From: an uncultured Prevotellaceae bacterium
GTDB lineage: Bacteria; Bacteroidota; Bacteroidia; Bacteroidales; Bacteroidaceae
Direction of reading: 5' to 3'
DNA length: 64,000 nucleotides
Assembly (NCBI GenBank): GCA_946415365.1
Contig: CAMKSE010000003.1
Coordinates: forward strand, 124,001-188,000
In this document: piece after piece, positions 38,475-56,020 of the stretch
Layout: every line of letters begins with the position of its first letter
Numbering within the stretch: the first letter of the stretch is position 1
Notes under the pieces: generated by a model
What the model was told of the DNA's origin: nothing
Seen by the model: the letters and a program-made list of their open reading frames with translations, nothing else
Databases searched by the model: none
Made by a program: the position numbers and the translations under genes

Positions 38475-38510
38475 CTTCAATCTTTCAATTTTCAATTCTT
38501 CAATCTTAAT
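38475..38510 (-). repeat. TTCAAT iterons before the 38474 start
   Basis: On the minus strand ATTGAA units with 6-8 bp spacing run up to the ATG at 38474. The same word recurs at the next junction upstream (39699-39737). Confidence 0.75.
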
Positions 38511-38529
38511 TACTTACATTTTCATTAAA

Positions 38530-39696
38530 TTACCAATAATAAGGTGCCTCGATATATGCATCTGGATATTTATATCTGACATCAAGTTGTTGTAAGAATG
38601 CCCATGCCGCATGGAGCTTACCGTCAATCGACCTCTCGGGCGTATCCCATTCGCACAAGTACAAGCCTTTCTGAACCATTCGTAAGCAATCTTCCTCGGT
38701 GGGTTCATCGATCCAGATGCGGTTATCTCCTAATGTTGACTGGCGGGCAGCGAATTCTCCGCCATTGAGGAAGAACCTGTAATCACTTGTGTTGAAAGAA
38801 CATCCTATGTATCCGATGACATGCTTGCGTGACGTGAGGCAATGGATATTGGTAGGCAGGGCCGACGGTAGCGGCGTGAACAAGCCACCCATCTCTGAAC
38901 CGGCCTGACGACGGGCCAACTCATACTCGTACTCTGCCTTTGTAATGGCACGTTGATGTACCAGACCGCTATATTTGTAAAAGATGCGCGGATCGTCTCG
39001 GTCAATGTCGTACAACTTGAGTTCCCGGATGTGCTGACCGTCGTAATTGGTGCTGGCACCAACCATGATCGTCGTACCGGAAGCATCCCTCCATCCGCGC
39101 TCTGGAAACTGGTTCAGCTTTTGGACGGGTGTCATCGTGTTAATATCGTAAAACCAAATGGTCTTGCATTCAGGACGCACCTCCCATGTCTCATCGTAAG
39201 TCCATGAGTAGTAATTTGCCTGATCATGCTGAAAAGGATCGTTAGGCGTGATGAGCACGTCGATATTACTTGTCGGCGTGTTCTGAACCCCTCTGATGTC
39301 TGCAATGCTCTCGGTACGCAACGGTTTCTGTGGCTCAGACTCATAGACCTCACCATCTGTCTCGATATGCAGATAGTATTTCACATCAGGCGCGAGAGTG
39401 CCCACCTGGCAGGCGTAATAGTCACCGTAATCCTGCATGGTATATTCTGTGCCGTCGTTCCCTCGTATGGAAACGATGGCTCCCGTTACCATTTGAGGTG
39501 CGTAAGAAGTGTTCAGCGCCTGTGTGCGCGACAGATAGAACTTGTTCAGTTGTGCCGAACAGATCGTGCCTTCAACCACGAGCAGGTTGGAATCCTCTGC
39601 GGAAATATCTGCTTCATATTCTTCAATACAACCCGACAGTGATGCGCCTATCATCAGACATAGCACCCAATATAGCGATTTCTTCAGCTTCATCAT
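38530..39696 (-). CDS. DUF4249 domain lipoprotein
   Basis: A 388-residue lipoprotein with lipobox SLSGC (Cys23) followed by the DUF4249 pattern (DSNLLVVEGTICSAQLNKFYLSRT, then VSIRGNDGTEYTM and YLHIETDGEVYESEP). Such proteins are consistently encoded next to TonB-dependent receptors in Bacteroidetes and are probably surface or periplasmic partners of the receptor. Direct biochemical data are lacking. It lies between the receptor gene and the MG2-like gene, separated from each by a TTCAAT repeat tract. Confidence 0.85.
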   Translation of the reverse strand: MMKLKKSLYWVLCLMIGASLSGCIEEYEADISAEDSNLLVVEGTICSAQLNKFYLSRTQALNTSYAPQMVTGAIVSIRGNDGTEYTMQDYGDYYACQVGTLAPDVKYYLHIETDGEVYESEPQKPLRTESIADIRGVQNTPTSNIDVLITPNDPFQHDQANYYSWTYDETWEVRPECKTIWFYDINTMTPVQKLNQFPERGWRDASGTTIMVGASTNYDGQHIRELKLYDIDRDDPRIFYKYSGLVHQRAITKAEYEYELARRQAGSEMGGLFTPLPSALPTNIHCLTSRKHVIGYIGCSFNTSDYRFFLNGGEFAARQSTLGDNRIWIDEPTEEDCLRMVQKGLYLCEWDTPERSIDGKLHAAWAFLQQLDVRYKYPDAYIEAPYYW

Positions 39697-39698
39697 AT

Positions 39699-39737
39699 CT
39701 TCAATTCTTCAATTTTCAATTTTCAATCTTCAATTGA
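39699..39737 (-). repeat. TTCAAT iterons from receptor stop to DUF4249 start
   Basis: Repeats of TTCAAT with 7-8 bp spacing occupy the whole gap. The receptor stop codon itself lies in the unit TTCAATTGA. Confidence 0.8.
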
Positions 39738-42681
39738 ATCTAATATTAAGTGAGACATAGGGAATGGCCGTACCAAACACAGAGAGTTTATACCCCTTTA
39801 TTTCCTCCCCTTCGGTGACATAGTAGATGTTATAGGCATTCTTACGTGCCAGGGCATTATACACACCGATCGAGAACGACGTGTGTAGGAAACTGGTCAA
39901 CTTATGGGTCGGTTCGATATTAAACGCCAGGTCCAAGCGCATATAGTCAGGAACACGATAGGTGTTACGGTCTGAATAATATGGCATGTATTTATGATTA
40001 CGTCGGTCGTAATACTTACCGGTTGGCAGCGTCGTCGGACGACCGGTGGCATAGTTGAAGTTGCTGGAGAAGCTGTAGCGCTCCGTAAACTTCAGGTTGA
40101 GCACAGCCTTCACCTCGTGGGGCCTGTCGTATTCGGAAGGATACCACTCGCCGTCGTTCAGGGGCATGGCCACCCGTTGGTCATCCTGACGGAGCAAGGA
40201 GCGCGAGAAGGTGTAGCTGACCCAGCCATTCAACTTTCCGAAAGGCTTCTTCGCCTGAAGCTCTATGCCGTAGGCCTGACCCTTGGTGGGGATCACGTCG
40301 GTCTCCAGGTGGTGGTTCATCAGCAGAACGGCCGAACTGCGATAGTTGAGGTAATCGCTGATATGCTTGTAGTAGACCTCTGCCGAGAACTCATAACGCT
40401 TGCCGGCGGTCTCATGATAGATACCGGCAGCCACCTGCCAGCCGTTCTGGGGTTTGATGTTCAGGTCGGAGAGCTTCCAGATGTCGGTCGGTGACATGAT
40501 GGACGTATTCGATACTTTATGGATATATTGGCGCATCGTGTTGAACCCGGCTTTCAAGGAAAGGTTCTCCTGAAGGGCATAACGGGCAGACAGACGCAGC
40601 TCCGGTGCGTGATAGGTCTTGATAACACCTGTTTCGTGACGGGTCTCCAAAAATGTTTCCTCCGACGGCAGCTCATAGTCTTCATAGACATTCACGTCAC
40701 GGGGGCCCAGCACATTGAACATCGAATAGCGCAGACCGGCAGAAACCGACAGCTTCTCTGTGAGCGAACGTTCGTAGTCGATGTAAATGGCACTCTCCAA
40801 GGCCTTCTCCCGCTGCAGCTCATCGGCCTTGATGAATGATCCTGGTCTTGCAGGCTCATACTTACCAGCCTGCACATCATAGCGCTGTACGGACAGACCG
40901 TATGAGAGGACCTGATCCTCAGGCAGACGCTGGCGGATATGCAGCTTACCCCACAGCTGGTCGATGCCGAAGCTCAGACGGGAGGCCATGGAAGGCGTGG
41001 CCCATTCCTCATTGAAGTAGTCGTAGTGGTCGAGGCCGGCGGAAAGGGTAGCGGTCGTTTTTTCGTTCAGGATAGAGCGCCACTCGGCAGAGATATTACG
41101 GTTCTGATAGCCATAATTATCCTCTGAACTGAACGAAAACTTGTCTTTACTCCAATAGCCATGCACTTTCAGGCGATGCAGATTGTTGAGTTTCCATGTC
41201 AGCACACCACCGAAGTCATAGAAGTTCGCTATACCGTTCTTGTAGCCGCTCTTCTCTGGCAATTTCTTGAGGATCCAGTCACTATAGGTCGTACGGCCAT
41301 TCAATAGGAGCGACACATGGTCCTTGACGATGGGAATCTCAAGATTCGCCTTACTGGTCAGCGCACCAATACTGGCCGAACCTGTCAACTTCTGCATGTT
41401 GGCCTCCTTCGAGGTCACCTTCAGCACGCTGCTGATCCTGCCGCCATATTCCACGGGGATACTCGACTTGAACAGCTCCACATCCTCAACGGCATCGGAA
41501 TTGAACGATGTGAACAGTCCGAAGAGATGCGACGGGTTATAGACCGTGCCGCCATTGAACAATATGAGGTTCTGGTCGGTGGCACCACCTCGCACGTTAT
41601 AGCCGCTCGAAGCCTCTCCGACGGTGGTGACGCCAGGCAGCGTGAGCACAATCTTCATGATGTCCGACTCACCGAAGGCCGACGGAATGTTCTTCAGGAT
41701 CTGGGGCTTAAACTTCTCAGCACCGATCATCATGTTTTCCACGGCCGACTGCCGACCACCGACAACGACGATCTCGGCCAGTTCCTGATCATCGGCAATG
41801 CTTGTCTTCGCTTTCTTCACGCCAGGCACTATATAGGTCTTTGTCTGTGACGATCCTGTTGTCATCCTTACAGTATCACTGTCAAGAACGGGGATGCCGG
41901 CAATCAGCTTCTTTTCGTCGATTGACAATGTGTCACGGAGGGAAGTTTTTCTTGCTATACTGCGCGATGTAACAAAAGAACCGTCCCTCTGTGATACTAC
42001 TATCGGAGAGCCGGAAACACTTTCTACTATTTTTGTCAGGCTCTGCTTACGTTCACGTTTGGAGAAGGACAGCCGATTCTGACTGGCAAACTGGCGGATC
42101 TGCCATTTCTGTTCAGGAAAGAGCTTCGCCACATCCGATGCACGCTTCACATGATGCGTTGTTTCGTCTGGCGTCATGAGCGTATAATGCTCTACCGTAG
42201 AAAGCGTCTTTAGGTTCTTCTCTTTATCAAAGATTCTTTCACCAGTATAAATCTTCCATTCACAATGATATAAGCGAATACCATTAGTGCTTCCGTCGCA
42301 AAGCAGATACGCATACCGTGAACTGTCCTCGGGATCATGCACATATCTGTGGCCATCCATCTCAAACCAGTCAATGTATGTCTGGTCTGGCAGGCAACAA
42401 ACATTTCCCACGGGAGAAAGAACAACGACTCTCTGCTTCAATTGGTCAAAACGAAGTAGTACCTGATCATAAACCACGCCATGATAGCTAATACGGCCTT
42501 CATAGAAATTTGTATTGCCTTTATAATAGGGGAGATCATGCCACAATGACAATTGGTATTGTGGTTCAACTGCCCCCACATACAGATGAGCAAAATTTGA
42601 AGCAGAGGGGAATCTCCCCTGAGCTTCAACATCCTGTATGACAGTCATCATACAGACAAATACCAACAAATATTTTTTCAC
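39730..42681 (-). CDS. TonB-dependent receptor with novel N-terminal domain
   Basis: A 983-residue outer-membrane receptor. The signal peptide ends near residue 20. Residues about 21-210 form a domain with FYEGRISYHGVVYDQVLL and YIDWFEMDGHRYVHDP that I do not recognise; it stands where the usual carboxypeptidase-regulatory-like domain would be. A Ser/Thr-rich stretch leads to the plug (about 302-440, IVVVGGR, PGVTTVGEASSGYNVRGG) and the barrel, which ends SLNIRFN. It starts inside the stop of the upstream lipoprotein gene (4-bp overlap) and is followed by DUF4249. The substrate is unknown. Confidence 0.88.
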   Translation of the reverse strand: MKKYLLVFVCMMTVIQDVEAQGRFPSASNFAHLYVGAVEPQYQLSLWHDLPYYKGNTNFYEGRISYHGVVYDQVLLRFDQLKQRVVVLSPVGNVCCLPDQTYIDWFEMDGHRYVHDPEDSSRYAYLLCDGSTNGIRLYHCEWKIYTGERIFDKEKNLKTLSTVEHYTLMTPDETTHHVKRASDVAKLFPEQKWQIRQFASQNRLSFSKRERKQSLTKIVESVSGSPIVVSQRDGSFVTSRSIARKTSLRDTLSIDEKKLIAGIPVLDSDTVRMTTGSSQTKTYIVPGVKKAKTSIADDQELAEIVVVGGRQSAVENMMIGAEKFKPQILKNIPSAFGESDIMKIVLTLPGVTTVGEASSGYNVRGGATDQNLILFNGGTVYNPSHLFGLFTSFNSDAVEDVELFKSSIPVEYGGRISSVLKVTSKEANMQKLTGSASIGALTSKANLEIPIVKDHVSLLLNGRTTYSDWILKKLPEKSGYKNGIANFYDFGGVLTWKLNNLHRLKVHGYWSKDKFSFSSEDNYGYQNRNISAEWRSILNEKTTATLSAGLDHYDYFNEEWATPSMASRLSFGIDQLWGKLHIRQRLPEDQVLSYGLSVQRYDVQAGKYEPARPGSFIKADELQREKALESAIYIDYERSLTEKLSVSAGLRYSMFNVLGPRDVNVYEDYELPSEETFLETRHETGVIKTYHAPELRLSARYALQENLSLKAGFNTMRQYIHKVSNTSIMSPTDIWKLSDLNIKPQNGWQVAAGIYHETAGKRYEFSAEVYYKHISDYLNYRSSAVLLMNHHLETDVIPTKGQAYGIELQAKKPFGKLNGWVSYTFSRSLLRQDDQRVAMPLNDGEWYPSEYDRPHEVKAVLNLKFTERYSFSSNFNYATGRPTTLPTGKYYDRRNHKYMPYYSDRNTYRVPDYMRLDLAFNIEPTHKLTSFLHTSFSIGVYNALARKNAYNIYYVTEGEEIKGYKLSVFGTAIPYVSLNIRFN

Positions 42682-43442
42682 AATCCCCAGTCGTAAGATG
42701 TCCTATACAATGCCCGTCCGGAACGAGCATCGATAACGAGTCCTTCCAAACCGTTTCTCACCTCGTAGGCAAGACGCGGGCCGAATGACTCCCCCTCAGG
42801 AACTCGCACAATCTGCAATTCACATCGGTTCTCGTCATAGTCGTCAAGTTTCATAAACGACTTGAATATCTCTATGGCAACCCCTTTGCTAAAACTCGGC
42901 GTCACGTCGAAGTCCTTGATAGGGAGGTAGTCACAACTCCCCCCAACCATCAGGTCATCAATGAAAGAGATACAGCCCGATGATGTCTTCACTATAACAT
43001 CTTTATAATACTGCTGGTAATAATCGTGCGTTTCAAAATGCATCCCGCTATCCCATTCAGTATGTTGGATGCATCTGAAATAGTCGATTACGCCCTCACC
43101 AAAGTATCTTTCATAGAATTCTGACACTGTTTTGGGACGTTCTTCGGCAGGTGCTCCTGTGAAATCAACTGCTTCAATCGCACCCAAGGAATTACGCATC
43201 ACCTTCAAGTTTCCTTCCTGGATATAACCCTGACCCCACAATGGGGCGTTGGCAAAGCCCCACTCATTACCCGTAAACTCCGTCGTCGTCTGATTGAGTA
43301 GTCCTTCTGGGAAATCTTCTTTAAGCAGTTCCTTATACAACCGATCATCAAAGACGGGGTCATCGTCATCTCTACTGCAACCGCTCAGTCCTGCCGTCAT
43401 CAGGAGCAGCGCGCAAATCCATAAAAAACCGTTCTTCTTCAT
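42678..43442 (-). CDS. Lipoprotein with PepSY/FTP-like C-terminal end
   Basis: A 254-residue lipoprotein. The ATG at 43442 gives a good signal peptide and lipobox LSGC (Cys22), with acidic residues right after it (SRDDDD). The C-terminal RLAYEVRNGLEGLVIDARSGRALY resembles the end of PepSY/FTP propeptide-like domains, as does the lipoprotein at 47074, but no protease is attached. It is first in the receptor operon and is preceded by one of the six shared composite promoters (43460-43537). Function unknown. Confidence 0.65.
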   Translation of the reverse strand: MKKNGFLWICALLLMTAGLSGCSRDDDDPVFDDRLYKELLKEDFPEGLLNQTTTEFTGNEWGFANAPLWGQGYIQEGNLKVMRNSLGAIEAVDFTGAPAEERPKTVSEFYERYFGEGVIDYFRCIQHTEWDSGMHFETHDYYQQYYKDVIVKTSSGCISFIDDLMVGGSCDYLPIKDFDVTPSFSKGVAIEIFKSFMKLDDYDENRCELQIVRVPEGESFGPRLAYEVRNGLEGLVIDARSGRALYRTSYDWGL

Positions 43443-43459
43443 ATACTTTAGTTTGATTG

Positions 43460-43537
43460 CAAAGTAACACCTTTTTTCAATTATATAATATGAGAAAGGC
43501 GAAAATCTTGCATGGGAAGATATGCAATTTAACAAAG
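43460..43537 (-). promoter_or_regulatory. Composite promoter copy i (receptor operon)
   Basis: On the minus strand CTTTGTTAAA (plus 43528-43537), TATATAA (plus 43481-43487) and TTACTTTG (plus 43460-43467) occur in order; the ATG follows after 17 nt. Spacing matches the copies near 45614, 45951, 47841, 53563 and 56103. Confidence 0.7.
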
Positions 43538-43586
43538 TTTTCGATTTAAGGTGCCTCTTTTACTAATTGTAACAAAAGGACTCATC

Positions 43587-44645
43587 TTAACTGAAACTTT
43601 CTATGTACTCCATCACCCGTGCCGTGAAGTCGTCGGTGAACAAGAGATAGACAGTGCCGCCTTCTTCAAACAGGTATTGATTGGGGTGCTCGATATATAC
43701 ATTAACCATTCTCTCCTCTAAGTCGTCTTTGTATGGGAATCCCCCCATGTTGTGGATGACCTTGATGTAAACATACCAGGTTGCCTCTTGGTTGATACCA
43801 CTCCATATCTCTGTGTCTGACAGTTCTATTTCGTTGTTCCTTATACAGGTGTCAAGCATACGCCGAATCTGACTTCTGTTCATCTGGTTGATCACGGCAT
43901 CTTGTGCGAGCATATATTTGAAGACCACTGAGAGCAGAGTATACATTCCTATTTCTATACTCTCCTTGCCTTTCATCAGGTCGGCCTTCTGCCAATTGAC
44001 GTCAAGAAACAAAAGGAACGGCTCTGCCAGATCGTCCCGGCTAAGCAGTTCCCTGAAGCCGTTAAAATTGTTATACAACGCTTTGAAACCTGTTTGGAAA
44101 TCATTGAACGCAAAGAGGTCTAAAGTGAACGGATACTCTAAACACACCTCGATGAGGTCTTCTGTACGCATGCTGCCAAGCAGGTTGTCTGACAGTTGCA
44201 TCCTTGCATGCCTTTCCTGTACGCTCAGGTTTTGCCATTCGTCAGTACCTGCTTTTAACGGATAAGTATATACATGTGTGCAAATCCATGGGGCACCAGT
44301 AGTAACAACGGCGTTAAGATCCTCCTGTGTCGTGATGGTTTGCGGCAGTCCATCCTCATTATACAGCTCAGTTCTGGTCTGCGCCCTGGTGGGATACTCC
44401 AAGAGATAGCGTCCTCCATTGTTGTCGCTATGATATACTTTCAGATAGGGCGTCTCTTTTATCTTTTCTTGCAGCCAAAGTGGTTGTTGGGTATCGTCCT
44501 CAGTGAGATAGAAAGCCTTTTGAAGAGGTGTCGCTGGTACACTCGTTTCGATATCCCTCAGTTCTTCATCATCACTGCTACAACTGCACATGCCGATGAC
44601 CAGCATCAGCGTGGCAGTCATAATAAGACGCAAATCTGTATTCAT
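43587..44645 (-). CDS. Lipoprotein, family not recognised
   Basis: A 352-residue lipoprotein with signal peptide and lipobox GMCSC (Cys22). The mature protein is mostly helical and acidic, with PLWLQEKIKETPYLKVYH near its start, LLEYPTRAQTRTELY at about 80-95, and a long helix-rich middle part. The C-terminal YLFEEGGTVYLLFTDDF looks beta. No catalytic motif is evident. It is the last of three consecutive lipoprotein genes that start at 45596 behind composite promoter copy ii. The role is unknown. Confidence 0.65.
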   Translation of the reverse strand: MNTDLRLIMTATLMLVIGMCSCSSDDEELRDIETSVPATPLQKAFYLTEDDTQQPLWLQEKIKETPYLKVYHSDNNGGRYLLEYPTRAQTRTELYNEDGLPQTITTQEDLNAVVTTGAPWICTHVYTYPLKAGTDEWQNLSVQERHARMQLSDNLLGSMRTEDLIEVCLEYPFTLDLFAFNDFQTGFKALYNNFNGFRELLSRDDLAEPFLLFLDVNWQKADLMKGKESIEIGMYTLLSVVFKYMLAQDAVINQMNRSQIRRMLDTCIRNNEIELSDTEIWSGINQEATWYVYIKVIHNMGGFPYKDDLEERMVNVYIEHPNQYLFEEGGTVYLLFTDDFTARVMEYIESFS

Positions 44646-44664
44646 ACTTTTCGATTTAGAACTC

Positions 44665-45156
44665 TTACCACTCTTTGATGTTGAGTTTGCCCTTCAGACT
44701 ATTATTATAGGAGATGTTGAAGCGGAAACGCTCTTCTGCGTGTTTTGCCGAAGACAAATCATAACCATTGATGAAGACAATAGTGTAATCGCCGTTTTCC
44801 AATGGACCAATCTCGCAATAGAGGTCATAAGGGCAGATGCAATTGGCTCCCGCAAATTGTTCCGTCTCAATGATCATGATTTCATTGCCAGAGATGGTGG
44901 CCTGCATCTTCAGTTCGCCAGGCTCGCAGTTAAAACAAGCATTCACATGATTGATCGACAGGTAGCCGTTGGCCAAGGCCTTGTACTCGATAGATTCCTG
45001 ATGGAGTCCATCTCCCCTTGTGGCAGCCACAGACTTACAACCCGTGTTTGCGAATTCTCTCACATGAAACTGCACAGCTTCATCGCTGCTACAACCGTAC
45101 ATACCCATCATCATAAGGACCAAGCCACAGATGATACTTAATACACTCTTCTTCAT
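44665..45156 (-). CDS. Small cysteine-containing lipoprotein
   Basis: A 163-residue lipoprotein, lipobox MYGC (Cys22). The mature domain has five or six further cysteines, four of them in two clusters (NACFNCEPGEL and NCICPYDLYC), a pattern that suits disulfides or a structural metal site. The C-terminus looks like a small beta-sandwich (ENGDYTIVFINGYDL). I do not know a named family. It lies 8 bp after the 45165 gene and 19 bp before the 43587 gene in a run of lipoprotein genes. Confidence 0.65.
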   Translation of the reverse strand: MKKSVLSIICGLVLMMMGMYGCSSDEAVQFHVREFANTGCKSVAATRGDGLHQESIEYKALANGYLSINHVNACFNCEPGELKMQATISGNEIMIIETEQFAGANCICPYDLYCEIGPLENGDYTIVFINGYDLSSAKHAEERFRFNISYNNSLKGKLNIKEW

Positions 45157-45164
45157 ACTAACAA

Positions 45165-45596
45165 CTATTTTATGTATATACGTTTCATCTTGGGGATTGC
45201 TTCTTCAAATGCCTGTACGAAATCTTCGTCATGAAAATCCAGTTGCTCACCATCTTCATAATAACTATCACAGAAGACACAGGAATTCAAATGGTTGTAA
45301 ATAAAATAAAAGACAGATCCGGCACAAACTCCCCGGAACAATTGTGGATTATCCCCCCATTCTTTATTACCTTCTCGGAAAACAGACTTTTCTCGCCCTC
45401 TTTTTTCCTCAATAGAGGATATCCAGGAAATTAGCCACCCTGGAAGGCTTTCAAGATCTACATACTCGACTTCAGCATTGAGGAAACCTCCATTTCCAGC
45501 CATAACATCAGTTGCCTCATCCGAATTGCTGCAGGCGCTGAACATTCCAAGCGAGAGCAGCATACTCACCATAATAAATAAAAGATTCTTCTTCAT
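45165..45596 (-). CDS. Small lipoprotein of the sigma/barrel locus
   Basis: A 143-residue lipoprotein, lipobox MFSAC (Cys22), whose signal peptide (MKKNLLFIMVSMLLSLGMFS) closely resembles those of the lipoproteins at 51342 and 53729 that follow sigma/barrel genes. The mature part has FRGVCAGSVFYFIYNH and a CVFC motif. It is preceded by composite promoter copy ii (45614-45689), and just upstream by the decayed sigma-barrel gene at 45692, so the position parallels the intact modules. Function unknown. Confidence 0.65.
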   Translation of the reverse strand: MKKNLLFIMVSMLLSLGMFSACSNSDEATDVMAGNGGFLNAEVEYVDLESLPGWLISWISSIEEKRGREKSVFREGNKEWGDNPQLFRGVCAGSVFYFIYNHLNSCVFCDSYYEDGEQLDFHDEDFVQAFEEAIPKMKRIYIK

Positions 45597-45613: not shown

Positions 45614-45689
45614 CAAAAATAATACTTTTTACTAATATAGTGTAAGAAAAGGGCTGAAGACTGCATGGGCAGTCTTATAATTAACATAG
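45614..45689 (-). promoter_or_regulatory. Composite promoter copy ii
   Basis: On the minus strand CTATGTTAA (plus 45681-45689), TATATTA (plus 45633-45639) and TATTTTTG (plus 45614-45621) occur in order; the ATG at 45596 follows after 17 nt. Confidence 0.65.
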
Positions 45690-45691
45690 TT

Positions 45692-45916
45692 TCACCAACG
45701 GAGGCGGATGCCAAGTGGCAGAGTGATGCTTAATGGGTGTTCTGTACGGTAGGTCTTGATATTGCTGCCATCGTCGACAAAGTATTGCAGGCTGGGCTCT
45801 AAATAGATGCCGAGATAGTGCAGACGCAGACGTTCTTGGATATAGGCTTGGCTACTGCCAGTCTTGATAGTGGAACTGAGCCTGTATTGCTGATATAAGC
45901 GCTCATTACTCAGCAT
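45692..45916 (-). pseudogene. Decayed copy of the sigma-TM-barrel fusion gene
   Basis: The 74-residue frame joins three pieces of the intact fusion protein encoded at 51900-53543. Its first residues, SNERLYQQYR, match the sigma N-terminus (residues 9-18). Then comes LSSTIKTGSSQAYIQE, matching barrel residues 412-427, then IYLEPSLQYF...PLGIRLRW, matching 510-547. Two in-frame internal deletions thus removed most of sigma region 2, all of region 4, the membrane helix and most of the barrel. It keeps an ATG and composite promoter copy iii. It is not expected to work. Confidence 0.85.
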
Positions 45917-45950
45917 CGTCGATCTTGCTGGATACTTTAGATATACGTTG

Positions 45951-46027
45951 CAAATTTAATTCTTTCTTCTTATATTGTGTTCAGAAGAGCGGAATGACTG
46001 CATAAGGGAATAAGTATTTTAACAATG
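45951..46027 (-). promoter_or_regulatory. Composite promoter copy iii (before the remnant)
   Basis: On the minus strand CATTGTTAAA (plus 46018-46027), AATATAA (plus 45970-45976) and TAAATTTG (plus 45951-45958) occur in order. The region is closely similar to copy v before the intact fusion gene. Confidence 0.65.
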
Positions 46028-49538: not shown

Positions 49539-50087
49539 GTGCAGGAGACAGAACGACAGCTGATAGAAGCGATACAGGCTGGTGACAAAGGGGCGTTGCG
49601 ACGCCTCTATGAACGGTTCGCCAGATATGCGATGGGTGTGACGCTGAGGTATGTGCCGACGCGAGACGACGCACTCGACATCGTACAAGACAGCTTTGTC
49701 GGCATCCTCACCAACATCGGTACTTTCAAGTATCAAGGCGAGGGATCCCTGAAGTTCTGGGTGGCGAAGATTGTCAGCAATCAAGCCGTCAACTGGATCA
49801 AGGAACATCAACAGCTATCGTTCTCAGACCTAACGTCTGATGAAATCGAGGACGAAGAGGAGGCTATCGTCGAAAAGGTGCCTCCAGACATATTGAATGG
49901 GATGATAGCCCGGCTGCCCCTGAGATACAGGGTTGTCGTTAACCTACGTACTTTCGAGCAGCTCTCCCATAAAGACGTCGCGCTTAGGCTCGGCATTCCA
50001 GAAAAGACATCCGTCTTACTGTTCCATCGAGCCAAGCGCAAGTTAGAAAAGATGATCAAAGAATACTTAAACTCACAGAGGATATGA
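49539..50087 (+). CDS. ECF-type RNA polymerase sigma factor
   Basis: A 182-residue ECF sigma factor beginning at a GTG codon. Region 2 is at about 22-85 (LYERFARYAMGVTLRYVPT, DDALDIVQDSFVGI) and region 4 at about 120-175 (LPLRYRVVVNLRTFEQLSHKD, VALRLGIPEKTSV, a helix-turn-helix). It ends in KEYLNSQRI with a 4-bp overlap (ATGA) with the next gene, so sigma factor and membrane partner are made together. The partner has a short cytoplasmic head that could hold the sigma factor at the membrane. The module repeats, inverted, at 53729-56020. Confidence 0.92.
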   Translation: MQETERQLIEAIQAGDKGALRRLYERFARYAMGVTLRYVPTRDDALDIVQDSFVGILTNIGTFKYQGEGSLKFWVAKIVSNQAVNWIKEHQQLSFSDLTSDEIEDEEEAIVEKVPPDILNGMIARLPLRYRVVVNLRTFEQLSHKDVALRLGIPEKTSVLLFHRAKRKLEKMIKEYLNSQRI

Positions 50088-51289
50088 AAGAGGAAGAATG
50101 GATAAAACGGTTACACGACCATCTGGCAGACTTCGAAGCGCCTGTCCCTGATGATTTGTGGGATAAAATCGAGGCCCGTCTTCCGAAAGAGCTGGTCGCT
50201 GAGAAGCCCAAGGCCCGCATGGTTCCCTTGTGGGTGAGATGGACGGCAGCCGCCGCTCTTGTAGGCATACTCGTCGCAACGACAGTCCTCCTTTGGCCCA
50301 AACACGCGGAAACGCCAACGGCACCAATGGCCTCAGCCACAAAGGAAGGCTATAAAACACCGATGGAATCGACGAAAACGAATGAATCAGAATCTGTCAG
50401 CCCTGTCGTTGCAAGGAGAACGAAGCTTACCTTCAAACAGCCAACCCTCGCAGAGGCAGAGGTAACAGAGAAAGAGATGACAGAGGCGGAGGTAGCAGAG
50501 ATAGCTTCCACGGTTCAGCCGGAACAATCCTCCACAGAGTCATCGGTAGAGGAAAAGCAGAAGACGGAACCATCGCAGCAGAATTTGATACGTGAACTCG
50601 ATGAGAAGATTGCAGACTACAAGATGCAGCACAAACGTCGAGTGGCTGTCAGCCTCTATGCCTCCAACGGCTTCGGCAACCTGTCGAGCAGAAACGGCGT
50701 GTTGATGAGTGATGAGATGTTGGCTTCCTACGACTATGACAGTCGCATGGGGATAAAGTCCACCCGCAGAGGCGGTGACGTCTACCTCGCCAACTACGAG
50801 GAGCGACAGAACTATTACCAGCCCATCTCCTTCGGACTGACCGCAAATTTCCCCATTTCATCGAAACTGTCATTGTCATCTGGTGTCGTCTATACCCGTC
50901 TTCGCTCAGACTTTACCAATGTGGCGGACTACCTCATCTCTCAGCATCAGACCACGCTCCACTATATCGGCATTCCCCTGAACGTGCAGTATCACGTCTG
51001 GCAGTGGCAGGGGCTGAACGTCTATGCAACGGCAGGCGGACAAGCCGATTTCAACGTGAAAGCGCGTCTGGAGGAAGACGGAGTGGAGCATGACATGCAG
51101 AAAGACCGCACACAGTGGTCTCTGGGTGGTGCGCTGGGCGTACAATACAACTTCATCCCACAGTTGGGCGTTTATATCGAGCCAGGCATCAAATACTACT
51201 TCGACAATGGCAGCAACATACGCAATTACTTCAAATACCGTCCTACGAACTTCAACCTTCAGATAGGTATCAGACTGCAAGGTTTTTAA
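50084..51289 (+). CDS. Trans-envelope anti-sigma-like/beta-barrel protein (copy 1)
   Basis: A 401-residue protein with an unusual domain order. It has a cytoplasmic head of about 50 residues (WIKRLHDHLADFEAPVPDDL, WDKIEARL), one membrane helix at 52-71, a Glu/Thr/Pro-rich linker (72-180) and a C-terminal outer-membrane barrel-like domain (about 186-401) ending GIRLQGF with a terminal Phe. The head is shared with the 54201 product and is probably the sigma-binding part. One polypeptide could thus link the outer membrane to a cytoplasmic sigma factor. The start overlaps the sigma gene (ATGA). Confidence 0.8.
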   Translation: MKEEEWIKRLHDHLADFEAPVPDDLWDKIEARLPKELVAEKPKARMVPLWVRWTAAAALVGILVATTVLLWPKHAETPTAPMASATKEGYKTPMESTKTNESESVSPVVARRTKLTFKQPTLAEAEVTEKEMTEAEVAEIASTVQPEQSSTESSVEEKQKTEPSQQNLIRELDEKIADYKMQHKRRVAVSLYASNGFGNLSSRNGVLMSDEMLASYDYDSRMGIKSTRRGGDVYLANYEERQNYYQPISFGLTANFPISSKLSLSSGVVYTRLRSDFTNVADYLISQHQTTLHYIGIPLNVQYHVWQWQGLNVYATAGGQADFNVKARLEEDGVEHDMQKDRTQWSLGGALGVQYNFIPQLGVYIEPGIKYYFDNGSNIRNYFKYRPTNFNLQIGIRLQGF

Positions 51290-51341: not shown

Positions 51342-51752
51342 ATGAAGAAAACAGTATTTATTCTGATGAGCGTATTGCTCTCATTAGGAACATTCTGCGC
51401 TTGTGGCAATGATGACAATGCCGTTATCAATCCTAAGACGAGCCAGTTGCCGAAGCAGGCCGACTTCATCAAGACGGTTACCGAAATCGGTTATATGACG
51501 TGCGACGCGGAGGATGGCACGTGGATCATTGACGTACCAACGCCTGTTCCGCCTGGTGAGGTTCTGATCGATGGAGGAACTTTCTATTATCTTTATGACC
51601 TGCCTGAAGAATATCAGAAGAAAGGCCTGAAAGTGAAGGCAACTTTAGATGTCTATATCTGCCACCATTTCGATGAGAAAGAGGTAATTATCAAATATGC
51701 AGGCTGGGATTATTACGATGCAGTTCTCAAACAAATTGAGATTGCAGAATAG
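51342..51752 (+). CDS. Small module lipoprotein (copy 1)
   Basis: A 136-residue lipoprotein, lipobox FCAC (Cys21), paralogous to the 53729 product: nearly the same signal peptide (MKKT-FILMSVLLSLGTFCA), then LADFIKTVTE-like start, the motif YYLYDLPEEYQKKGLKVKA and the end YYDAVLKQIEIAE. It follows the barrel gene by 52 bp as last gene of the operon. The constant position after a sigma/barrel pair suggests it is a module component, perhaps a periplasmic sensor or regulator. Function unknown. Confidence 0.75.
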   Translation: MKKTVFILMSVLLSLGTFCACGNDDNAVINPKTSQLPKQADFIKTVTEIGYMTCDAEDGTWIIDVPTPVPPGEVLIDGGTFYYLYDLPEEYQKKGLKVKATLDVYICHHFDEKEVIIKYAGWDYYDAVLKQIEIAE

Positions 51753-51899: not shown

Positions 51900-53543
51900 T
51901 TACCAACGGAAGCGGATACCGAGAGGTAAGGTGACACTTAGTGGGTGTTCTGTACGATAGGTCTTGATATTACTGCCATTATCGAAGAAGTATTGCAGGC
52001 TGGGTTCCAGATAGATGCCGAGATGCGGCGTAAAGTCGTATTGCAAGCCTATGCCGAGCGTTGTAGATAATTGGTTGGGAGCGTTCAGTGTCGATTCATT
52101 GTGATAGGTGGTGCTGCCGTTGGAAATATGGTTGACATCGGTGGTGCTGCGTATAGGTAATTCCAACATAAGCCCTGCAGAAGAGTAGAGGCTGAGGTGT
52201 GCCCTGCTGTACCACTGCCAACCAAGACGGAATGGAACACCAAGATAATGAATCCGCTGATGTTCCTGGATATAGGCCTGGCTGCTGCCAGTGTTGATGG
52301 TGGAACTGAGCCGTGTGTAACTGAGTCCCGTCTCGAAGGACAGCCGTTGGGAGAGCTGACGGCTGAGAAGCAATTGGATGGTGATAGGCAATTGATGTTC
52401 GTGTTGAGCCTCCATCTTGCCGCCGTTGACGGCAGAGTTTTGGGTAGCGATGTTGATTAGGGAACGGGTTTCCGGATCATCCGATACATAAGGACTGTTG
52501 CTCAGATAGTAATTGTAAACAAACCAATTGTCATATGCATCTTCTGTTGGAATCTGGCTGTTAGTGGCAGCATCAAAACTGCCTTTGCCGACGGTGGTTG
52601 CTGCCAGATAGTCGTCACGCTGGCCTATCTGTCCGTTGTAAGCCAGTTTGAGGTCCCACTTATCTGATGGTTCATACTTCGTAGTTACCGTGAGGTGGTA
52701 TTCTTCGTTGGATGGCAATGGTGGTAATGGTTGATAGATCAGCGTATCTCGAGGAGACTCCTCCTCTTGGGCTGTTTCTGTCAGGGTGTCTGTTCTCTCC
52801 TCAATAGCATGGTAAGGTATAGAGTCAGGCTGGACGACAGCCTCTGTCTGATAGTTGACGGGACTTGATGACGGTCTCTTGCCGGCAGCGGCATAGACAG
52901 GCTTGTCGTTAGGTCTTTCAACGACGGGCTTAGGCTGTTGAGGCTCTGATGAGGTCTTACGGGCTGTCGCAGGTTGTTCGGTAGGCTCTTCTTTCTGCAA
53001 GAGCTTCCAAACTGCCGTAGGAATGGCGATAAGTAATAGGAAAAGTACCCACGACTGACGGATCAGCGCCCTGAGCATTCGTTTGGCGTGAGCGAGCTGT
53101 GAGGAAGATGAGTGAGGGGCTATGCCGAGCAGCTGGCTGATCTCCTGATGCGATAAGCCCTCAAACACAGACAGCCTGAACACCTGCTGATAGCCTTGCG
53201 GCAATTGGGATACGAGTGATTGCAGTTCGTCATAGTCAGGAGCCTGGTTTGTCTCTGCGGTCTCTGGCCTCTCCTGCGCAAAACGTTGAAGTGCCGATTG
53301 TTCCTTATTGAGATGCTGGCGATAGTGGTAGCCCACGTTCCTGACGATAGCCGTCATCCACGACTCTATCTTTTCTGGATCCTCCAACTTGTCGAGCGAG
53401 GTCAGGATAATCACAAAGGCATCATGCAACAGATCTTCCGCCACATCATCCTCTCCTGCATATTCTTTACAGATATTCAGGAGTTTGGGCCTATATTGCT
53501 GATATAAGCGCTCGTTACTCTGTATTGGCGATTTTGTCGGCAA
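51900..53543 (-). CDS. ECF sigma factor fused to membrane helix and outer-membrane beta-barrel
   Basis: A single 547-residue frame with four parts. Residues about 11-80 are ECF sigma region 2 (YAGEDDVAEDLLHDAFVIIL, KIESWMTAIVRNVGYHYRQH). Residues 104-162 are region 4 (LPQGYQQVFRLSVFEGLSHQ, EISQLLGIAPHSSSSQLAHA). Residues 164-180 form one membrane helix. A Pro/Glu-rich linker (181-280) leads to a barrel-like domain (about 285-547) ending LPLGIRFRW with a terminal Trp. The neighbouring modules encode the same parts as separate genes, but here the anti-sigma-like head is absent. The start is a TTG at 53543; the codon aligned with the ATG of the remnant copy is ATA (53523-53525). Confidence 0.88.
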   Translation of the reverse strand: MPTKSPIQSNERLYQQYRPKLLNICKEYAGEDDVAEDLLHDAFVIILTSLDKLEDPEKIESWMTAIVRNVGYHYRQHLNKEQSALQRFAQERPETAETNQAPDYDELQSLVSQLPQGYQQVFRLSVFEGLSHQEISQLLGIAPHSSSSQLAHAKRMLRALIRQSWVLFLLLIAIPTAVWKLLQKEEPTEQPATARKTSSEPQQPKPVVERPNDKPVYAAAGKRPSSSPVNYQTEAVVQPDSIPYHAIEERTDTLTETAQEEESPRDTLIYQPLPPLPSNEEYHLTVTTKYEPSDKWDLKLAYNGQIGQRDDYLAATTVGKGSFDAATNSQIPTEDAYDNWFVYNYYLSNSPYVSDDPETRSLINIATQNSAVNGGKMEAQHEHQLPITIQLLLSRQLSQRLSFETGLSYTRLSSTINTGSSQAYIQEHQRIHYLGVPFRLGWQWYSRAHLSLYSSAGLMLELPIRSTTDVNHISNGSTTYHNESTLNAPNQLSTTLGIGLQYDFTPHLGIYLEPSLQYFFDNGSNIKTYRTEHPLSVTLPLGIRFRW

Positions 53544-53562: not shown

Positions 53563-53639
53563 CAAAATTAATTCAATCTTCTTATATAGTGTTCAGAAGA
53601 GCTGAATGACTGCATGGGAAGACACGTTATTTAACAAAG
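53563..53639 (-). promoter_or_regulatory. Composite promoter copy v (fusion gene)
   Basis: On the minus strand CTTTGTTAAA (plus 53630-53639), TATATAA (plus 53582-53588) and TAATTTTG (plus 53563-53570) occur in order. Confidence 0.7.
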
Positions 53640-53679
53640 TTTTCGATTTAAGGGGTCTCTTTTACTAATCATAACAAAA

Positions 53680-53708
53680 GGGGCACATAGGTGCCCCCCT
53701 GCCAGGTT
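53680..53708 (-). terminator. Terminator after the minus-strand sigma module
   Basis: On the minus strand the hairpin GGGGCAC-CTAT-GTGCCCC (plus 53690-53707) is followed by TTTTGTTA. It separates the 56020-53729 module from the promoter of the fusion gene. Confidence 0.75.
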
Positions 53709-53728: not shown

Positions 53729-54151
53729 TTATTCCACAATCTCTATATCCCTGAGGACTGCATCGTAATACTCATAGCCAGCATACCACATATGTTCCAC
53801 TCTCTCATTGAAATGCAGGAAGGTATAGCAATCTAAAGACGCCTTCACTTTCAGACCTTCCTTTTGATATTCTACTGGCAAGTCATACAGATAATAGATG
53901 TTTCCACCATCATATCTTATTTCCTGACCATGATAAGGAGATTTAATGAACCATGTGTTATCCGCTTTATCACACATGAGAACCCCCGTATCTGTAACCG
54001 TCTTGATAAAGTCGGCCAATGCTGGCATTTGACGTGTCGGATGACCAGTTGCGGAATTTTCTGGAGTATCGATATCGTCATCACTGCTGCAAGCGCAGAA
54101 TGTTCCTAATGAAAGCAATACGCTCATCAGAATAAATGCTGTTTTCTTCAT
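53729..54151 (-). CDS. Small module lipoprotein (copy 2)
   Basis: A 140-residue lipoprotein, lipobox FCAC (Cys21), paralogue of the 51342 product. Shared features are the signal peptide, LADFIKTVTDTG, YYLYDLPVEYQKEGLKVKA and the end YYDAVLRDIEIVE. Similarity is strongest in the signal peptide and the YLYDLP region. It is the last gene of the minus-strand sigma/barrel/lipoprotein module, 49 bp after the barrel gene and just before a terminator. Function unknown; a sensory role next to the barrel protein is inferred. Confidence 0.75.
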   Translation of the reverse strand: MKKTAFILMSVLLSLGTFCACSSDDDIDTPENSATGHPTRQMPALADFIKTVTDTGVLMCDKADNTWFIKSPYHGQEIRYDGGNIYYLYDLPVEYQKEGLKVKASLDCYTFLHFNERVEHMWYAGYEYYDAVLRDIEIVE

Positions 54152-54200: not shown

Positions 54201-55454
54201 TTACTTGATGTTGATTTTCAGACCTACATTCAGGTTAAAACCGAAAGGCTTGTCGCGATAGTAGGTGGGCAGACTGCTGCCGTTGTCGAAGTAATAGCCA
54301 ACGCCAGGCTCTGCATAGATGCTGAACCAGCGGCTGAGATTGAATTCTGCGCCAATGGCTCCGTTCACGGAGAACTGCAGCGGACGAATGGACACACTCT
54401 CCGTCGTCTCCAATTTGTCCTCACTCTCTTCAATATGCAGGCGGCCTTTTACCATCTTTTCTGCCATACCGCCAGCCGTGACATAGAAACTGCCATAATG
54501 ACTTCCCCACAGCTGATAGCTGACATTGGCTGGGATGCCGATATACGACAGCGTCTGTTCTATATTCGAAGTAACGGTCACGTCTGGTTTAAGATCTGTT
54601 GGAAGAGCAGTATGGATGTCAGAACAAAGGCGTGTATAGACCAATCCACTTTCGAGGCTCCATCTGTTGTTGAGGCGATAGCGCAGGGAAAGACCGTAAC
54701 GTATTGGCAAGTTGTGGTATACATCACTCTTTGCAGCACCACTTGCATAATCTGAGAGGCTTCTCGTTGGGACGTCAAGGGGCTTTCCATCTGGACCTAC
54801 AATGACATAATTATAAGTATGAATAATTTCAGTCGGAATGTTATGCTCTGTCTCTTTCATCGCGCCATTCGTCAGATACACCTTTGCCATCAGGCGGTTT
54901 CCTGAAACCGCTGGCTTGCGGATGTCTGTAGGATAGTCAAGTGGAAGAGGCATGGGAGAAGTGTTCGCAATTTGGGTATGAGAGTCTTCGTCGTGTGGGG
55001 CAGAAGATTCTTCCGCCAGCTGAACTGAAAGTTCCTCTTCCTGCTGCAATACTTCCGGCTCCGGCTGAGGCTCTGACGGTAGAGTGTCCGTCGGCAATAC
55101 TTGTGGCTTGTGACTGACAGACAACATCTTAGACTTGTGGCTAACGGATTCTTTTGCGACAATCTTTTCTTCCTTTGGCTGAGGACTTGTCTCCTTGTTA
55201 CTAACCTCAGTCTCCACATTATTCGCTGTTGTAGTATCCTCCTGCTGATTCCATGCCAGATAGCCTGTTGTGACAGCCACCAGCACCACAACGGCTGCCG
55301 CTATCCTGCGAGTCCACATCTGGACTATCCTTGCCTTCGCCTTTTGCCTGTTGTTGGCGAGTGCCTTCTCAATCTCATCCCACGACACCTCAGGGGCGGG
55401 CTGTCTGTAGCCTGCCAACTTCTGTTGCATCTGTTGTATCCATTGTTCTTTCAT
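54201..55454 (-). CDS. Trans-envelope anti-sigma-like/beta-barrel protein (copy 2)
   Basis: A 417-residue protein with the same layout as the 50084 product. A cytoplasmic head of about 48 residues (WIQQMQQKLAGYRQPAPEVS, WDEIEKAL) is followed by a membrane helix at 49-67, a long Pro/Glu/Ser linker (70-185) and a barrel-like domain (about 187-417; WSLESGLVYTRLCSDI, FSIYAEPGVGYYFDNGSSLP). It ends GLKINIK without the usual terminal aromatic. The head motif W-I-x6-L-x5-P-x-P-x3-W-D-x-I-E is common to both copies. The start overlaps the sigma gene (ATGA). Confidence 0.8.
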   Translation of the reverse strand: MKEQWIQQMQQKLAGYRQPAPEVSWDEIEKALANNRQKAKARIVQMWTRRIAAAVVVLVAVTTGYLAWNQQEDTTTANNVETEVSNKETSPQPKEEKIVAKESVSHKSKMLSVSHKPQVLPTDTLPSEPQPEPEVLQQEEELSVQLAEESSAPHDEDSHTQIANTSPMPLPLDYPTDIRKPAVSGNRLMAKVYLTNGAMKETEHNIPTEIIHTYNYVIVGPDGKPLDVPTRSLSDYASGAAKSDVYHNLPIRYGLSLRYRLNNRWSLESGLVYTRLCSDIHTALPTDLKPDVTVTSNIEQTLSYIGIPANVSYQLWGSHYGSFYVTAGGMAEKMVKGRLHIEESEDKLETTESVSIRPLQFSVNGAIGAEFNLSRWFSIYAEPGVGYYFDNGSSLPTYYRDKPFGFNLNVGLKINIK

Positions 55455-56020
55455 CGTGGGTGATATTGTTTGTTGTACTCTTTTATCTTTTTAGCGAGCA
55501 GGTCCTTGGCCCTGCGCAGTAGAGAGGAAGAGGATTTCTCCTTGATGCCAAGTAACTCGGCTATCTCCTTATGGCTCTTGTTCTCGAAGGCATATAGGTT
55601 CAGTGCCGTTCGATAGTTTGTAGGCAACTGGCTTACCATCTGATGGAGCACCTCTGGGGAAATGTCCTCTATCTGTGGCGCTTCCGGCTCTGACTCTTCT
55701 GGCGTGTCTTGTTCCAAGAGTAGCAGTTCTTGCCGTTTGGCTGTCCTCAGGAACTTCAGCGACTCGTTGATCACCACTCTGGTTGCCCAGGCTTCGAGAG
55801 ATCCTTCGCCACGATAGTTGAAGTCGCAGATGTGGGAGATAATGTGTACGAGCGACTCCTGAAACACATCCCTCATGTCTTCCTTATCGACTATATATCG
55901 TGCGCAGACACCCGCCAGTTGCTCTGCATATAGGGTATAGAACTCCTGCATCGCCCCGTTGTCTCCGTTGCGAAGCCGCTTTGCCAAGCGTTGCTCTTTA
56001 TTGATCCCTATCTTAATCAC
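55451..56020 (-). CDS. ECF-type RNA polymerase sigma factor
   Basis: A 189-residue ECF sigma factor. Region 2 lies at about 25-95 (MQEFYTLYAEQLAGVCARYI, DMRDVFQESLVHIISHI, GSLEAWATRVVINESLKFL) and region 4 at about 125-180 (LPTNYRTALNLYAFENKSHK, EIAELLGIKEKSSSSLLRRA). The 4-bp ATGA overlap with the downstream barrel gene mirrors the plus-strand module. It is preceded by composite promoter copy vi with a longer leader of about 80 nt, which fits autoregulation by this or a related sigma factor; that is inferred. Confidence 0.92.
   Translation of the reverse strand: MIKIGINKEQRLAKRLRNGDNGAMQEFYTLYAEQLAGVCARYIVDKEDMRDVFQESLVHIISHICDFNYRGEGSLEAWATRVVINESLKFLRTAKRQELLLLEQDTPEESEPEAPQIEDISPEVLHQMVSQLPTNYRTALNLYAFENKSHKEIAELLGIKEKSSSSLLRRAKDLLAKKIKEYNKQYHPR

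What the first reader, a model, noticed from the sequence alone, without database searches (positions are those of the whole stretch)
51900..53543. Sigma factor, membrane helix and outer-membrane barrel in one polypeptide
The frame encodes complete ECF sigma regions 2 and 4, then directly one membrane helix, a Pro-rich linker of about 100 residues and a beta-barrel-like domain ending in Trp. If expressed intact, it would reach from RNA polymerase to the outer membrane without a separate anti-sigma factor. Activation would probably need cleavage in or near the helix to free the sigma part. I know of membrane-bound ECF factors, but not of a described sigma-barrel fusion. The adjacent split modules make a chance fusion unlikely.
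Basis: partly seen in the sequence, partly recalled or inferred. Interest (0 to 1): 0.95.

Follow-up and report, generated by a model that had tools for sequence, protein, structure and literature searches.

The report
Sigma factor chained to outer-membrane barrel
One unbroken bacterial gene joins a transcription-starting sigma factor to a predicted membrane helix, a long linker and a predicted outer-membrane barrel; the design is already known as Dma3 in Bacteroides, but here we find that the fusion probably arose once, lacks the usual brake domain, and sits behind a conserved promoter-like element that it likely recognises itself and that also precedes neighbouring genes for predicted surface proteins and enzymes.

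Summary
ORF 51900-53543 (-) is one 547-aa frame with ECF sigma regions 2 and 4, one predicted membrane helix, a disordered linker and an OmpA-like barrel ending in Trp. It is no artefact: 115 of the 120 listed homologues cover at least 98% of it, 33 of 151 sampled family genomes carry a fusion, and the fused sigma domains form one clade. The novelty claim is wrong: Dma3 of Bacteroides thetaiotaomicron is a published sigma-barrel fusion (PMC13088901). Added here: fused forms lack the anti-sigma domain, the helix starting 0-15 residues after the recognition helix; 85 of 108 fused helices hold a proline, 3 of 40 split ones do; 83 of 104 fused genes have a TGCAGTC...CTATA-type element just upstream; the same element precedes radical-SAM, lipoprotein and methyltransferase genes, and such families lie downstream of 64 of 101 fused but 0 of 39 split loci. 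Best reading: a membrane-parked ECF sigma factor, likely freed by proteolysis on outer-membrane trouble, driving its own gene and adjacent surface genes. Activation and promoter binding are inferred.

The parts
51900..53543 (-). fused gene: ECF sigma factor - membrane helix - linker - barrel, 547 aa, TTG start
53319..53507 (-). sigma region 2 (residues 13-75)
53073..53231 (-). sigma region 4 (residues 105-157)
52998..53054 (-). predicted membrane helix (residues 164-182), with Pro 175
52674..52994 (-). linker (about residues 184-290), mostly low model confidence
51903..52670 (-). OmpA-like barrel part (residues 292-547), ends in Trp
53583..53616 (-). promoter-like element CATGCAGTCATT ... ACTATATA of the fused gene (matrix score 27.9)
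53676..53697 (-). terminator-like hairpin between the upstream lipoprotein gene and the fused gene (read by eye)
49539..50087 (+). split module 1: ECF sigma gene
50084..51289 (+). split module 1: Dma-like gene (about 50-aa cytosolic domain, helix, linker, barrel)
51342..51752 (+). split module 1: small lipoprotein gene
55451..56020 (-). split module 2: ECF sigma gene
54201..55454 (-). split module 2: Dma-like gene
53729..54151 (-). split module 2: small lipoprotein gene, paralogue of 51342-51752
45656..45667 (-). second promoter-like element of the same type (score 23.4), before a lipoprotein gene; predicted target
45165..45596 (-). 143-aa lipoprotein gene behind that element, head of a same-strand gene string
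45692..46004 (-). internally deleted copy of the fused gene with the same element (score 22.6) and a 74-aa frame

Best explanation
This is a Dma3-type protein, a single chain that holds an ECF sigma factor, a predicted inner-membrane helix, a predicted disordered linker and a predicted outer-membrane barrel, and it likely works as a membrane-parked sigma factor that is freed by cleavage in or near the helix when the barrel end signals outer-membrane trouble. Shown: the intact frame, its conservation as one clade, the missing anti-sigma domain, and a shared promoter-like element before the fused gene and neighbouring genes. Predicted: barrel fold, membrane helix, disordered tether. Inferred: the sigma part is held off because its recognition helix runs straight into the membrane helix; a site-2-type or other protease cuts it; the freed sigma part reads TGCAGTC...CTATA-type promoters, raises its own gene (positive feedback) and turns on adjacent lipoprotein, radical-SAM, oxidoreductase or methyltransferase genes that would change the cell surface.
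For: Domains and frame. 115 of 120 listed homologues cover at least 98% of the query. 107 fused plus 2 broken fused sigma domains form one 109-row clade, SH-aLRT 100, nested in split sigma domains. In 108 fused forms the helix begins 0-15 residues (median 8) after the recognition-helix motif; in 40 split Dma-like proteins it begins at a median of residue 51. Pro in the helix: 85 of 108 fused, 3 of 40 split. C-terminal Trp 89 of 108, aromatic 101 of 108. TGCAGT in 84 of 104 non-redundant upstream regions, 5.4 expected from shuffles; GCAGT 32-79 nt before the sigma domain in 83 of 104. Sister element TGCAGTA before split sigma genes, 19 of 41, 0.4 expected. Matrix sites of 18 or more: 227 in the loci, training sites and overlapping loci included, 3 in one shuffle of them; in the 64-kb window only three sites reach 18. 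Of 126 sites before other frames, 37 precede radical-SAM, 24 lipoprotein, 15 methyltransferase relatives. Downstream families beside 64 of 101 fused, 0 of 39 split loci. Two-part pattern in the own genome: 9 hits, reversed control 1. One M50 protease gene. Precedents: IutY, a sigma factor fused to a membrane anti-sigma part, is freed by Prc and RseP (PMC8999054); a split sigma / barrel-type anti-sigma pair is induced by envelope damage (PMC9308784).
Against: No expression, localisation or cleavage data. 17 of 104 fused upstream regions lack GCAGT, among them this genome's third fusion (C20); in six close relatives of the window protein (L021, L139, L140, L148, L151, L159) the element lies farther upstream, before another gene. 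The link between recognition-helix residues and the base after TGCAGT rests on 3 independent pairs, sign test p 0.5. 23 of 108 fused helices have no Pro. The -35-only pattern is weak genome-wide: 14 hits, 8 in the reversed control. Deleting dma3 did not revert hypervesiculation of dma1 or dma2 mutants and its role is unknown (PMC13088901). The window copy has a TTG start and a shortened first sigma helix. The model's pTM is 0.52 and says nothing on cellular place.
Confidence: 0.5

Rival explanations
1. The fusion acts uncut: the tethered sigma part recruits RNA polymerase at the membrane (as ToxR- or CadC-like membrane activators do with DNA; recalled), and the barrel only anchors or modulates it.
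For: No anti-sigma domain is left to hold the sigma part off. The recognition helix and membrane helix are predicted as one helix, which could point its DNA-reading end into the cytosol.
Against: The membrane-fused ECF factor with a tested mechanism, IutY, needs cleavage (PMC8999054). The fused helix differs in composition from split partners (Pro 4.8% against 0.1%, Leu 32% against 17%), which hints at a role of its own.
Confidence: 0.2
2. The barrel is an assembly reporter: a chain whose barrel fails to seat in the outer membrane exposes its aromatic C-terminus, is cut by periplasmic proteases and frees the sigma part, so each chain reports on its own insertion (a stricter form of the best explanation; DegS reading of unassembled porin ends in E. 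coli is recalled).
For: C-terminal Trp in 89 and an aromatic residue in 101 of 108 fused forms; among split partners Tyr 13, Lys 9, Asp 5, Phe 4 of 40.
Against: A terminal aromatic residue is usual for outer-membrane barrels (recalled) and may serve insertion only. No protease or stress data.
Confidence: 0.2
3. The TGCAGTC element is read by another regulator, for example a split-type sigma factor or a DNA-binding protein, and the fused gene is only one of its targets.
For: Split sigma genes carry a sister element, so cross-reading is possible; dma3 rises in dma1 and dma2 mutants (PMC13088901). No direct binding data.
Against: The element variant follows the sigma type: PH-type helix with C in 64, neither in 22, discordant in 6 of 92 rows. 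The target families lie beside fused loci, not split ones.
Confidence: 0.15
4. The fusion is an artefact or a decaying gene.
For: TTG start; a deleted copy lies 6 kb away; two broken fusions occur in another genus.
Against: 108 distinct intact fused frames, 115 of 120 listed homologues end to end, one clade.
Confidence: 0.02

Closest known systems
Dma3 of Bacteroides thetaiotaomicron (dma3 locus bt_2778-2779; PMC13088901, passages read)
   Same: Sigma domain at the N-terminus of a dual membrane-spanning protein. In B. faecis the fusion is followed by a radical-SAM gene, which fits a two-gene locus (inference).
   Different: BT_2778 itself was not in hand, so identity was not measured. At the window locus no radical-SAM gene follows; in this genome one follows the C2 fusion. 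No promoter or regulon of Dma3 is given in the passages I read.
Dma1 / Dma2 and the split Das-Dma pairs
   Same: Helix, disordered tether and C-terminal barrel (PMC13088901); barrel parts align with the fused ones (hhalign probability 100, E 1e-58); sister promoter-like element.
   Different: Split forms have an N-terminal anti-sigma domain of about 50 residues and a separate sigma gene; fused forms do not. Target families differ.
IutY of Pseudomonas putida (ECF243; PMC8999054, passages read)
   Same: ECF sigma factor in one chain with a membrane part; activated by proteolysis.
   Different: IutY carries a fused anti-sigma part and, in the passage seen, no barrel; the window protein has no anti-sigma part and a barrel.
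ECF52 SCO4117 of Streptomyces coelicolor (PMC8999054, passages read)
   Same: Sigma factor with C-terminal membrane part and a Pro-rich extracytoplasmic stretch.
   Different: The review gives that group a zinc-finger domain and SCO4117 a carbohydrate-binding domain in place of a barrel.

Membership tests
Dma3-type sigma-barrel fusion | N-terminal sigma domain in the same chain | tested here: met
Dma3-type sigma-barrel fusion | transmembrane helix followed by a long disordered tether | tested here: met
   prediction only: hydropathy and low pLDDT 192-289
Dma3-type sigma-barrel fusion | C-terminal beta-barrel | tested here: met
   PF13568 over cut-off; model matches OprF and OmpA barrels
Dma3-type sigma-barrel fusion | not encoded next to a cognate sigma gene | tested here: inconclusive
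   two sigma genes lie within 2 kb of the fused gene's ends, but each is followed by its own Dma-like gene
Dma3-type sigma-barrel fusion | common descent with B. thetaiotaomicron Dma3 (BT_2778) | tested here: inconclusive
   same clade as fusions of the related species B. faecis; BT_2778 itself not retrieved (one search gave no species names)
Dma3-type sigma-barrel fusion | sigma part in the cytosol, barrel in the outer membrane | not testable with these tools
   needs fractionation
Dma anti-sigma factors (Dma1/Dma2 kind) | N-terminal anti-sigma domain | tested here: not met
   helix 0-15 residues after the recognition helix in 108 fused forms; profile comparison aligns only the barrel part
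IutY-type sigma/anti-sigma fusion | anti-sigma part between sigma factor and membrane | tested here: not met
ECF21 sigma group | assignment by ECF classification models | not tested
   no such models at hand; NCBIfam sigma70-ECF (TIGR02937) is over cut-off, Sig70_bacteroi1 (TIGR02985) below
OMP_b-brl_2 barrels (PF13568) | score over the curated cut-off | tested here: met
   34.8 bits against 27

The most novel reading that the evidence does not exclude
A one-molecule outer-membrane alarm: sigma factor, membrane switch, tether and barrel form a single-use device in which the state of the barrel decides whether the same chain is cut and starts transcription. No anti-sigma domain is needed because the DNA-recognition helix itself continues into the membrane. 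A dedicated promoter class (TGCAGTC...CTATA) rebuilds the alarm and remodels the cell surface through lipoprotein, radical-SAM, oxidoreductase and methyltransferase genes.
Probability: 0.3. Interest if true: 0.82.

Novelty: new member of a known kind. Interest (0 to 1): 0.52.

Why it matters
[quoted passage not shown] The promoter-like element and adjacent gene families give the fused type a predicted regulon that one reporter assay can test. If the mechanism holds, it shows how a bacterium can wire the outer membrane to RNA polymerase in a single chain, without a separate anti-sigma factor.

Tried and rejected
Sigma + anti-sigma + barrel in one chain: L061, L062, L063, L064 and L084, taken for their long frames or adjacent parts, have stops between the sigma and Dma-like genes, so they are split pairs. 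Similar long frames in G495 and G425 were not read.

Spread beyond the family: among the matches listed in a 395-genome phylum sample none spans the whole query outside the window's family; that list is cut off and only about 3 candidates per genome were scored. (best 80 of 546 loci kept) shows fusions in records labelled Muribaculaceae and Porphyromonadaceae too.

Helix-to-promoter covariation: 64 rows with a PH-type helix and C, 22 with neither, 6 discordant, of 92; but 3 independent pairs, p 0.5. Not claimed as proof of direct reading.

A second homologue search gave no species names. Rfam found nothing in three loci with short repeated units. A first two-part pattern missed even the fused gene's own site, being written too narrowly. 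The -35 pattern alone is weak in the own genome: 14 hits, 8 for the reversed control; with a -10 part 9 and 1 (the hit on C34 was not examined). The filter put 79 sites before fused or sigma genes and 126 before others; 13 of these 126 are sigma genes too.

Rows dropped: 1 of 108 fused (short sigma match) left out of the tree; 1 lost for length and 3 for redundancy before the 104 upstream regions; 2 broken fusions left out of the 42 split pairs (40 used); loci with under 1.2 kb downstream left out of the neighbour count (101 and 39 counted); members without letters at a site left out of the matrix (76 training sites). The tree is a quick one with long branches.

Literature limits: the paper that founded the Dma family (Pardue 2024), the EcfO paper (2013) and the ECF re-classification paper were not held. 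PMC7366714 (passages) says an EcfO motif is published; I could not compare it. So I cannot say that the element or the regulon is unpublished; I found neither in the searches.

Full report

Surroundings. The gene sits between two mirror-image three-gene modules: sigma 49539-50087, Dma-like 50084-51289 and a small lipoprotein 51342-51752 on the plus strand; sigma 56020-55451, Dma-like 55454-54201 and a small lipoprotein 54151-53729 on the minus strand. The Dma-like proteins have about 50 residues before their helix; the fused protein has no such domain. A terminator-like hairpin at 53676-53697 (by eye) and a promoter-like element at 53583-53616 make the fused gene look like its own transcription unit.

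Relatives. A search of 5.8 billion proteins gave 2502 homologues among 7997 scored candidates; of the 120 listed, 115 cover at least 98% of the query and are 527-615 residues long. Among 151 genomes of the same family, 28 have one alignment spanning the fusion and five more (G008, G092, G126, G140, G150) were confirmed by reading frames: 33. The window's genome has three fusions (C3, C2, C20). Named carriers of full-length matches include Bacteroides salyersiae, B. faecis, Leyella stercorea, Prevotella multiformis, P. denticola, Alloprevotella rava and Segatella baroniae. From the loci fetched by then, 108 distinct fused frames were collected. On a quick tree of 153 sigma domains the fused ones form one clade (SH-aLRT 100) inside the split ones; the two 'split' rows in it are broken fusions. 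One ancient fusion is the simplest reading; the alignment has 174 columns and several long branches.

What the fusion changed. In 108 fused forms the helix starts 0-15 residues (median 8) after the recognition-helix motif; in 40 split Dma-like proteins it starts at a median of residue 51. Pro lies in the helix of 85 of 108 fused and 3 of 40 split forms; Leu makes up 32% and 17%, Ala 7% and 26%. From helix to barrel profile there are 118-244 residues in fused and 137-270 in split forms; this stretch is the least conserved of those measured, which fits a tether across the periplasm (inference). The last residue is Trp in 89 and aromatic in 101 of 108 fused forms. Profile comparison aligns fused and split proteins over the barrel part only.

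A promoter-like element. Upstream of 104 non-redundant fused genes TGCAGT occurs in 84 (5.4 expected from block shuffles) and TGCAGTCT in 65 (0.3 expected). Aligned, sites read CRTGCAGTCTTTT, then mostly 24 nt from the G the C of a CTATA-type -10; 83 of 104 lie 32-79 nt before the sigma domain. Split sigma genes carry a sister element, TGCAGTATTTTT ... CATTTATA, the core TGCAGTA being in 19 of 41 (0.4 expected). Two branches of one sigma family behind two variants of one element suggest that each reads its own promoter; this is inference, and a tree-aware test has too few independent changes. 17 of 104 regions lack the core; in six close relatives of the window protein it lies before an upstream gene, and in L021, L139 and L151 that gene ends just before the fused one.

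A predicted regulon. The matrix finds 227 sites of 18 or more in the fetched loci (training sites and overlapping loci included) and 3 in one shuffle of them. After merging repeats and with later loci there are 205; of the 126 before frames that the filter did not take for sigma genes, 37 precede relatives of a radical-SAM/SPASM enzyme, 24 of a lipoprotein of some 185 residues, 15 of a methyltransferase, 1 of a C25 peptidase, and 13 are sigma genes after all (domains). In B. faecis the order is M23 peptidase, fusion, radical SAM, Gfo/Idh oxidoreductase, C25 peptidase, with further sites before the radical-SAM gene (seen in L118) and the C25 gene. Within 3.5 kb downstream 64 of 101 fused loci have one of four such families; 0 of 39 split loci do. 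In the window three sites reach 18: the fused gene, a deleted copy of it, and a lipoprotein gene followed on the same strand by more lipoprotein-like genes and a gene with a TonB-receptor plug domain. In the whole genome the two-part pattern has 9 hits at 8 places against 1 for the reversed pattern; 7 of the 8 places are two fused genes, two neighbours of the C2 fusion and three repeated units.

Mechanism. A split sigma / barrel-type anti-sigma pair of P. vulgatus responds to envelope damage: the toxin BcpT raises the sigma gene 33-fold (PMC9308784, passages). Dma1 and Dma2 control vesicle formation in B. thetaiotaomicron, and Dma2 also polysaccharide loci (PMC13088901, passages and section 6). 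With no anti-sigma domain, the simplest way to keep a fused sigma factor off is to fix its recognition helix at the membrane, and the simplest way to turn it on is to cut it loose, as Prc and RseP do for IutY (PMC8999054, passages). A Pro in most fused helices and an M50 protease gene in the genome are compatible with that but do not show it. Action without cleavage, an assembly reporter, and another reader of the element stay open.

Known or new. [quoted passage not shown] BT2778, in the dma3 locus, is annotated as a sigma-70 family factor and stands in an iron-response table with a ratio of 2.3 (PMC10434189, passages). The window protein is a further member of that kind by architecture and by clade with the B. 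faecis fusions; BT_2778 itself could not be compared. I did not find the single origin, the loss of the anti-sigma domain, the promoter-like element or the adjacent regulon in the open library, but the founding 2024 paper was not readable here, so they may be in print.

Noticed in passing
window 45692-46004 (-): An internally deleted copy of the fused gene: the same promoter-like element, the first sigma codons and pieces of the barrel in a 74-aa frame.
   Followed up: partly
L205, L209, L214 (own genome C3:62.9 kb, C4:106.6 kb, C11:29.6 kb): Three copies of a unit of about 300 nt: TGCAGTC element, very short frame, conserved tail with a strong hairpin; no Rfam match at gathering scores. Could be a small RNA or a mobile repeat.
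   Followed up: partly
L065 (G074) and L090 (G002): Fusion genes broken between the sigma part and the barrel in two genomes of the group coded g3, to which G541 (identical fusion to B. faecis) also belongs.
   Followed up: partly
L146:8888-11200: In B. faecis a C25-family peptidase gene stands behind a further site of the same type, score 21.6.
   Followed up: no
L164, L165, L195, L166, L198: Sites of the same type before genes that by eye look like serpins or caspase-like peptidases; not searched with a family library.
   Followed up: no
L021, L139, L140, L148, L151, L159: In the window protein's close relatives the element stands before an upstream gene, and the fused gene looks like the second gene of an operon in at least L021, L139 and L151.
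   Followed up: partly
window 37224-45596 (-): Same-strand string of lipoprotein-like genes and a gene with a TonB-receptor plug domain behind the element at 45656-45667; may be one operon.
   Followed up: no
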